From the NCBI RefSeq assembly GCF_023703795.1, contig NZ_CP098518.1, positions 1,736,001 to 1,800,000 on the forward strand: 64,000 bases of DNA, given 5' to 3'. Shown in pieces: positions 55,746 to 57,385 of the stretch; the stretch's first letter is position 1; each line of letters begins with the position of its first letter. This DNA comes from Haloplanus sp. HW8-1 (GTDB taxonomy: Archaea; Halobacteriota; Halobacteria; Halobacteriales; Haloferacaceae). The position numbers and the translations under genes were made by a program. A model generated the notes under the pieces. It had not been told where the DNA came from and made no database searches. It worked only from the letters and a program-made list of their open reading frames with translations.

Positions 55746-56189
55746 TCACCCGCGCACCACAAGCACCTTCGCGTTCCCTCGACGGTCGACGTAGCCGCTC
55801 CCGGCCGGCGGTTTCACCTCGATCAGCAGCGTGCCCTCGTCCTGATTCGACCGGAGGCTGGGCGCCGCCGAGACGGTCACCGTGCCGTCCTCGCCGGTCG
55901 TCGCCGTGCGCACCCCGTCGAGGTCCGCGCTCCCCGCCTTCACGATGACCGTCGCGTCGGCCACCGACGATCCGTCGGCACCGACCACGGTGAGTTCGAT
56001 GGACGTCTCGCCGGGACTCACAACCTCCGGTTCCGGGCGCACGTCGAGTTCCGTCGTCGATAGCCCCTGGATGCCCGTCAGCATGTTCATCATGACGCTC
56101 AGACTGGCGACGCCGATGACTAGGGCGATGACCAGTCTGATCGGCAGTCCCTCGATGGCTCGACGATCCGCGCGGAACGACTCGAACAT
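55746..56189 (-). CDS. Membrane-anchored carboxypeptidase-regulatory-like domain protein
   Basis: A 147-residue protein: a short cytoplasmic start, one membrane helix at about 14-40 (PIRLVIALVIGVASLSVMMNML), and an extracellular beta domain of about 95 residues with the DGSSVADATVIVKAGSADLDG and GEDGTVTVSAAP repeats typical of carboxypeptidase-regulatory-like (beta-sandwich) modules. It resembles type IV pilin-like exported proteins in layout but has no clear pilin cleavage motif. The ATG at 56189 is preferred. Function unknown, surface-associated. Confidence 0.7.
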   Translation of the reverse strand: MFESFRADRRAIEGLPIRLVIALVIGVASLSVMMNMLTGIQGLSTTELDVRPEPEVVSPGETSIELTVVGADGSSVADATVIVKAGSADLDGVRTATTGEDGTVTVSAAPSLRSNQDEGTLLIEVKPPAGSGYVDRRGNAKVLVVRG

Positions 56190-56237: not shown

Positions 56238-57385
56238 ATGTGTGGACGGGAGGTCACTCCCGCCGTGCACGTACTCGGACGCGACGACTCGGTGGGCCCG
56301 GCGGTACGCCTCGGTCGCTACCGTGCCGCCGACGGCAGCGACGGCGCGGCGGTCGGACTGGATCTGGACCGTCCACACGCCGCGCTGATCGTCGGCAAAC
56401 GGGGCTACGGGAAGTCACACACGCTCGGCGTCCTCGCGGAGGACGCGGCACGCGCGACTGGCGTCGCCCCCGTCGTCGTCGATCCGATGGGGGGGGGGGG
56501 TTCGACGGCCTCGCTGCGGGCGATGCCGTCCCGGCGACGGTCGTCGAGACGCCGCGGGTTCCCGCGGCGACTCTCCCGCCGTCGGCTTGGCCCGCGCTGT
56601 TCGACCTCCAGCCGACCGACGCCGTCGGGTCCCTGCTCTGGGAGGCCGCCGCGACGGCCGAAACCCTCCTCGGGATGCGCGCACACGTCGAGGCGGCGCC
56701 CGTCGGTGACGACGTCCGGCGCGCCGCGGAGAATCACCTCGCCCTCGCCGACGCGTGGGACGTCTTCGCGGCCGACGGTCTGGATTCCGACACACTCCTG
56801 TCGGGGGAGGCGACCGTCCTCGACTGCTCGAGGCTCGACGACCGGGCGGCCGGGGTGCTGGTCCGTGCTGTCGCACTCGGCCTCTACGACGTCTGTGTCG
56901 AGCGCCGCGCCGACCGCCTCCCGTGGCTCCTGATCGACGAGGCCCACGCCTTCCTCGACGGCGTCGCAGCCCCGGCACTGGAGACGGTACTGACACGCGG
57001 GCGAACCCCTGGCGTCTCGCTGGTCGCCGCTACACAGCGGCCGAGTGTCCTCCCGTCCGTCGCCGTCTCACAGGCGGATCTGCTGCTCGCCCACCGGGTC
57101 ACCGACGCCGCCGACGTGGACGCGCTGACCGCGGCGACGCCGACTTACCTCTCGGGGACTCTGCGCGAACGACTGCCGACCGATCCTGGCGACGCCGTCG
57201 TCGTCGACGACATCACCGAGTCCGTTCACGGCGTGCGGGTGCGCCGGCGCGAGACGCCCCACGGCGGCGCCGACCCGCGGGCGAGCGACCGCGGGGATCA
57301 GTCCGCCGCGTCGTCGAGGTCGGTTCCGCAGTCCGGACATTCGTCGTCGACGACGGGGACCGGCGCCGCACAGTCGGGACAGTAA
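56238..57385 (+). pseudogene. HerA/VirB4-like ATPase split by a 12-G tract
   Basis: The N-terminal part (56238-56488) has the P-loop GKRGYGKSHTLG (residues 53-64) and ends in VVVDPMG; the C-terminal part, in another frame, continues with FDGLAAGDAV and holds LLIDEAHAFL (Walker B) and GVSLVAATQRPSVLPSVAV (sensor). The two are separated by 12 consecutive G (56489-56500); 10 or 13 G would join them. It is either a frame-broken gene, a phase-variable one or a sequencing artefact. The last ~30 codons overlap the zinc-ribbon gene antisense. GTG 56265 is an alternative start. Confidence 0.7.

What the first reader, a model, noticed from the sequence alone, without database searches (positions are those of the whole stretch)
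56238..57385. HerA/VirB4-like ATPase interrupted by a 12-base G tract
Seen: a P-loop part and a Walker-B/sensor part lie in two frames exactly either side of 12 G (56489-56500). A change to 10 or 13 G restores one continuous ATPase. Inference: this could be a phase-variable switch, an artefact of homopolymer sequencing, or a recent pseudogene. A long G homopolymer inside a gene is unusual here and the rest of the gene is well kept, which suggests it is recent or reversible.
Basis: partly seen in the sequence, partly recalled or inferred. Interest (0 to 1): 0.68.

Follow-up and report, generated by a model that had tools for sequence, protein, structure and literature searches.

The report
ATPase gene split by twelve Gs
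In a salt-loving archaeon (genus Haloplanus), a widely conserved DNA-pump-like ATPase gene is split by a run of 12 Gs, the only G/C run of ten or more in the genome; it looks like a recent, lineage-private slippage mutation or a mis-counted run rather than an evolved on/off switch, and only re-sequencing can decide.

Summary
Twelve Gs (56489-56500) sit exactly where a HerA-fold ATPase gene changes frame. 7, 10, 13 or 16 Gs would give one frame; 12 gives a 231-aa truncated product. It is the genome's only G/C run of 10 or more (22 G8, 2 G9, no G10-11). None of 79 distinct haloarchaeal orthologues has a long run there; close relatives read ATG-GGN-GGG-TTC. A T/C-to-G change would make G7, and slippage could take it to G12.

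Both halves are still under purifying selection, with no other lesion. Other coding G8/G9 runs keep frame except one, in a multiply broken gene, and frameshifts are rare in a 400-kb sample, so the assembly is not generally indel-ridden. The gene is dispensable: two of 11 congeners lost it by IS insertion or deletion.

Against an evolved switch: the tract is private, and even in-frame G10 or G13 adds 1-2 glycines to a DPMGxF loop of invariant length. I favour a recent slippage knock-out, reversible in principle. The main rival is a mis-called length. A sister species' only long G tract splits a type IIG restriction gene, so a wider slippage phenomenon is not excluded.

The parts
56489..56500 (+). 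G12 homopolymer, frame-breaking
   Evidence: Sequence; the only G/C run of 10 or more in the genome
56238..56489 (+). 5' part of the ATPase gene, native frame (84 codons: N-terminal strands, Walker A, start of the DPM loop)
   Evidence: tblastn to orthologues, 83% identity over residues 1-84; DUF87 E=1.7e-4
56394..56417 (+). Walker A / P-loop GKRGYGKS
   Evidence: Direct reading; invariant G-K-R-G-x-G-K in 37 orthologues
56501..57385 (+). 3' part of the ATPase gene in the shifted frame, no internal stop
   Evidence: 79% identity to the G003 orthologue over its residues 75-343
56927..56947 (+). Walker B LLIDEAH
   Evidence: Direct reading; D-E-x-H invariant in 37 orthologues
56238..56933 (+). 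Predicted truncated product at G12 (231 aa: native sequence to ...DPM, then tract-encoded glycines and out-of-frame residues)
   Evidence: ORF list and tract-length table
55746..56189 (-). Divergently transcribed DUF7382 protein, conserved neighbour of the ATPase gene
   Evidence: Pfam PF24107 E=1.3e-28; neighbour in 61 of 71 haloarchaeal loci

Best explanation
A recent, lineage-private replication-slippage allele. In this Haloplanus lineage a T/C-to-G change in a glycine codon of the conserved DPM-G-G-F loop merged the G stretches of ATG-GGN-GGG-TTC into a run of 7 (inferred). A run that long is slippage-prone and then grew by a net five to 12 (inferred), throwing the second half of the HerA-fold ATPase out of frame (shown). 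The gene as assembled is OFF and encodes a 231-aa fragment with Walker A but no Walker B. The state is probably unstable and could revert at slippage rates (inferred), but nothing indicates that selection built or keeps it as a switch. The intact protein is most likely a hexameric HerA-type DNA-translocating ATPase (inferred from fold and motifs).
For: Unique G12 in the genome, far off the run-length decline. Orthologue sites in congeners read ATGGGTGGGTTC, ATGGGCGGGTTC, ATGGGCGGCTTC or ATGGGCGAGTTC, and none of 79 distinct orthologues has a long run there. Everything downstream is in one open frame, 79-81% identical to the nearest congeners. dN/dS of G000 pairs with its nearest sisters is 0.27-0.29 after the tract against 0.22-0.24 among intact sisters, and 0.06-0.12 before it. 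The assembly is otherwise clean. The gene is dispensable: IS-disrupted in G007 and deleted to a remnant in G004, yet 133 of 145 good family genomes keep it. HerA fold.
Against: No read data: a real length of 10 or 13 would make the gene intact. Single-base differences in poly-C/G tracts of Halobacterium NRC-1 were put down to sequencing error by those who re-sequenced it (PMC11834397). A sister species' only long G tract also breaks a gene, which hints at a broader pattern rather than an isolated accident.
Confidence: 0.5

Rival explanations
1. Local sequencing/assembly miscount: the expanded tract is real but its true or majority length is 10 or 13, so the ATPase is intact with one or two extra glycines.
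For: Runs of 10 or more are the hardest to count. In Halobacterium NRC-1 three single-base losses in poly-C/G tracts were judged likely sequencing errors (PMC11834397). No second lesion and normal constraint fit an intact gene.
Against: Coding G8/G9 runs keep frame except one in a multiply broken gene; in 400 kb about 189 gene comparisons give only two genes with genuine frameshifts. In-frame lengths still alter a loop of invariant length.
Confidence: 0.3
2. Selected phase-variable switch: slippage among 10-13 G turns the ATPase on and off in subpopulations.
For: Long intragenic G tract, frame-breaking, open frames preserved, genome outlier. G-tract length switches pglX in Streptomyces coelicolor (PMC4365076). 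In congener G002 the only long G tract splits a type IIG restriction-modification gene that is one frame of about 1,290 aa in some 18 relatives.
Against: Tract absent from all 79 distinct orthologues. It lies in an invariant-length motif, so even ON lengths change a conserved loop. The locus is a conserved chromosomal one beside DUF7382, not a surface or restriction gene. The haloarchaea studied so far are polyploid (PMC9997560), which would blunt a one-copy switch.
Confidence: 0.12
3. Fixed early pseudogene on its way out, as in G004 and G007, where the gene is already lost.
For: Repeated loss in the genus. A divergent compact homologue on contig C2 (32% identity) might substitute. The estimated omega of the G000 branch is slightly raised (0.32 against 0.22-0.26, three-taxon arithmetic).
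Against: No second inactivating change and near-normal dN/dS, so any death took up at most roughly a tenth of the terminal branch (inference). A G12 run is by nature unlikely to stay fixed.
Confidence: 0.06
4. Transcriptional or ribosomal slippage on G12 makes some full-length protein from the out-of-frame gene.
For: Long homopolymers are known substrates for polymerase slippage (general knowledge). Both frames stay open and constrained.
Against: No conserved tract or frameshift signal in any orthologue; intact orthologues need no recoding.
Confidence: 0.02

Closest known systems
Homopolymer contingency loci, e.g. the pglX G tract of Streptomyces coelicolor (PMC4365076)
   Same: Intragenic G run in a G+C-rich genome; a change of one G changes the frame
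   Different: pglX is a shown switch in a phage-defence gene (8 G to 7 G inactivates Pgl). Here there is no shown heterogeneity, no recurrence in relatives, and the tract is in a conserved catalytic-domain loop
Single-base losses in poly-C/G tracts of Halobacterium NRC-1 (PMC11834397)
   Same: Haloarchaeal poly-C/G tracts in a gene and pseudogenes with uncertain length
   Different: Those are single-base differences judged likely sequencing errors; here a new run of 12 interrupts an otherwise conserved gene
HerA hexameric DNA translocase, Sulfolobus (PDB 4d2i)
   Same: Best fold match, TM 0.76 by query length, E 9e-16; Walker A, Walker B and HerA_C motif
   Different: 18% identity, shorter (about 345-380 aa), scores far below the NCBIfam HerA cut-offs
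PADLOC mad8 (methylation-associated defence system protein)
   Same: Similar size; matched nearly end to end, E 4e-16
   Different: Standalone conserved gene; no such defence cassette seen among the neighbours examined; 53-83% identical across haloarchaea

Membership tests
Homopolymer phase-variable (contingency) locus | Unusually long homopolymer inside the coding frame | tested here: met
   G12, only G/C run of 10 or more in the genome
Homopolymer phase-variable (contingency) locus | Single-unit changes move the gene in and out of frame | tested here: met
   Product table for 6-16 G
Homopolymer phase-variable (contingency) locus | Tract recurs at the locus in relatives with varying length | tested here: not met
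   0 of 79 distinct orthologues; same-species strains were not available
Homopolymer phase-variable (contingency) locus | In-frame lengths give a normal protein | tested here: inconclusive
   G10/G13 insert 1-2 Gly in the DPMGxF loop, whose length is invariant in 37 orthologues
Homopolymer phase-variable (contingency) locus | Mixed lengths within a population, with a phenotype | not testable with these tools
   No reads or clones available
HerA/FtsK-superfamily ATPase | Walker A, Walker B with DEAH, HerA-type fold | tested here: met
   Motifs invariant; HerA_C above cut-off in the intact orthologue; AlphaFold pLDDT 91, Foldseek top hit HerA
Bona fide HerA of the HerA-NurA repair pair | Equivalog score above the curated cut-off | tested here: not met
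   NF040819 20 bits against 970; NF040937 18 against 800
Decayed pseudogene | Further inactivating lesions or relaxed selection | tested here: not met
   No stops; dN/dS against nearest sisters 0.27-0.29 after the tract and 0.06-0.12 before it

The most novel reading that the evidence does not exclude
Haloplanus (and perhaps other haloarchaea) uses long, lineage-specific poly-G tracts as reversible on/off switches, here for a HerA-fold ATPase and in a sister species (G002) for a type IIG restriction-modification enzyme. That would be homopolymer phase variation in haloarchaea.
Probability: 0.12. Interest if true: 0.65.

Novelty: new member of a known kind. Interest (0 to 1): 0.3.

Why it matters
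As a mutation it is a clean case of how a silent codon change can create a hypermutable site and switch off a conserved archaeal ATPase. If lengths prove mixed in cultures, it would be a directly testable example of homopolymer phase variation in a haloarchaeon. The single paper in the searched library holding 'haloarchaea', 'phase variation' and 'homopolymer' together was about bacterial and eukaryotic repeat sequences, so no described case turned up, though that library is incomplete.

Tried and rejected
General assembly error was tested with the genome's G8/G9 sites and a 400-kb gene-by-gene comparison, and rejected as a general explanation. Most automatic frameshift calls in that comparison were over-long or antisense ORFs (negative coding scores or intergenic junctions). 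A survey of 34 long G tracts in the family with base-composition and codon statistics could not place most of them inside genes; the codon model was too strict to be a usable classifier, since it also failed on the two tracts placed in genes by homology. An attempt to name the strain through its plasmid failed. Six other orthologues in public assemblies have frameshifts or truncations (L120, L122, L123, L126, L127, L128), and G022 and G103 look frameshifted near residue 205; none of the six is at a long G run, and the last two were not examined.

Full report
Observation. The window holds twelve consecutive G at 56489-56500. The frame opened by ATG 56238 carries Walker A (56394-56417) and ends ...VVVDPM at the tract. 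The frame that continues after the tract (56501-57385) carries Walker B (56927-56947) and has no stop. Translating 6 to 16 G shows that 7, 10, 13 and 16 give one 380-383 aa protein, and that 12 gives 231 aa.

How unusual. Base composition alone would not make it striking within the window (9 of 100 shuffles give as many G9 matches). The real genome avoids such runs. This genome (3.84 Mb, 3 contigs, 99.9% complete) has 22 G8, 2 G9, none of 10 or 11, and this G12. The decline predicts 0.001-0.005 runs of 12 or more. In the family 79 of 170 genomes have at least one run of 10 or more, so such runs do occur, mostly not clearly inside genes.

What the gene is. Intact orthologues are about 345-380 aa. 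Pfam HerA_C E=5e-7 and DUF87 near its cut-off; PADLOC mad8 nearly end to end, E=4e-16; PDB sequence matches to TdpA and HerA at about 1e-5 to 1e-4. AlphaFold of the Haloplanus ruber orthologue has pLDDT 91 and Foldseek's best hit is Sulfolobus HerA, TM 0.76 by query length. It is far below the curated scores for HerA proper, so I call it a compact HerA-fold ATPase, not HerA. 133 of 145 good genomes of the family have the gene. A DUF7382 gene lies next to it, divergently transcribed, in 61 of 71 loci.

Where the tract lies. It falls in a loop reading V-V-V-D-P-M-G-x-F in nearly all orthologues and of identical length in all 37 aligned, just after the strand that follows the P-loop helix in the model. 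Congeners read ATG-GGT-GGG-TTC, ATG-GGC-GGG-TTC, ATG-GGC-GGC-TTC, ATG-GGC-GAG-TTC and the like. None of 79 distinct orthologues (10 congeners and 69 others after removing two duplicates) has a long G run there, and the longest G or C run in or near those genes is 7. The simplest history, inferred, is one T/C-to-G change creating G7 with the protein unchanged, followed by slippage to G12. Only G7 restores the ancestral loop; G10 and G13 restore the frame but add one or two glycines.

Real or artefact. Of the genome's G8/G9 runs, those clearly inside genes keep frame (in L148, L149, L150, L154, L156, L159, L162, L163, L165, L167). The exception is a G9 in a dipeptide-epimerase-like gene with several frameshifts. 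Comparing 400 kb with the relative G003, about 189 ORF comparisons gave 14 automatic frameshift flags. On inspection only this gene and the epimerase-like gene look genuine. The assembly is therefore not generally indel-prone, but the exact count of one run of 12 remains unverified. Poly-C/G tract differences in Halobacterium NRC-1 were ascribed to likely sequencing error by those who re-sequenced it (PMC11834397).

Age and selection. Pairwise dN/dS of the window's gene against its nearest sisters (G003, G005, G008) is 0.27-0.29 after the tract and 0.06-0.12 before it. The same comparisons among those intact sisters give 0.22-0.24 and 0.06-0.16. Three-taxon arithmetic on those numbers gives about 0.32 for this branch against 0.22-0.26 for two sisters. 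The gene was under purifying selection until very recently, or still is. It is nonetheless dispensable: in G007 a transposase-bearing insertion splits it near residue 286, and in G004 only the last 37-39 codons remain.

Switch or accident. For a switch: the tract is long, intragenic, frame-breaking and in a gene whose frames are kept open; G-tract switching of pglX is established in Streptomyces (PMC4365076). In congener G002 the only long G tract (G12) splits a type IIG restriction-modification gene, which is one frame of about 1,290 aa in some 18 relatives without a tract at that place. Against: no recurrence at the locus, an intolerant-looking position, no typical contingency function, and polyploidy in the haloarchaea studied (PMC9997560). 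I therefore do not file it as a contingency locus. I favour an incidental, recent slippage allele (0.5), then a miscount (0.3), then a switch (0.12).

Limits. No reads, no conspecific strains, and no protein or RNA data were available. The slippage step, the T/C-to-G step and the instability of the tract are inferences. The orthologue survey used pattern-seeded searches and is not exhaustive.

Noticed in passing
L058 position 1501 (G002:C1:1110251-1110262): In a sister Haloplanus species the only G/C run of 10 or more, a G12, splits a type IIG restriction-modification gene out of frame; some 18 relatives have one intact frame of about 1,290 aa with no tract at that place.
   Followed up: partly
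L157 about 1497-1505 (own genome C1:1,940,299-1,940,307): A dipeptide-epimerase-like gene carries several frameshifts, one at a 9-base C/G run; probable pseudogene.
   Followed up: partly
55746-56189: A DUF7382 protein with a hydrophobic N-terminal segment is encoded divergently beside the ATPase gene in 61 of 71 haloarchaeal loci, suggesting a functional link.
   Followed up: partly
L014 about 380-1500 (G007): An insertion element splits the orthologue near residue 286; its own transposase appears to be in two frames around an A7 run (gtcgaaaaaaacggc), possibly a programmed frameshift (by eye).
   Followed up: no
L015 1501-1617 (G004): Only the last 37-39 codons of the orthologue remain, beside unrelated DNA with a TnpB-like ORF (by eye).
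   Followed up: no
G106, G148, G151, G155 (genus g21): A few genomes of one genus have tens to hundreds of G10 matches while most relatives have none to a few; not clear whether real or assembly artefact.
   Followed up: no
L029 1501-2310 (own genome C2:116443-117252): A divergent compact homologue (32% identity) on a 124-kb contig might compensate for loss of the chromosomal gene.
   Followed up: no
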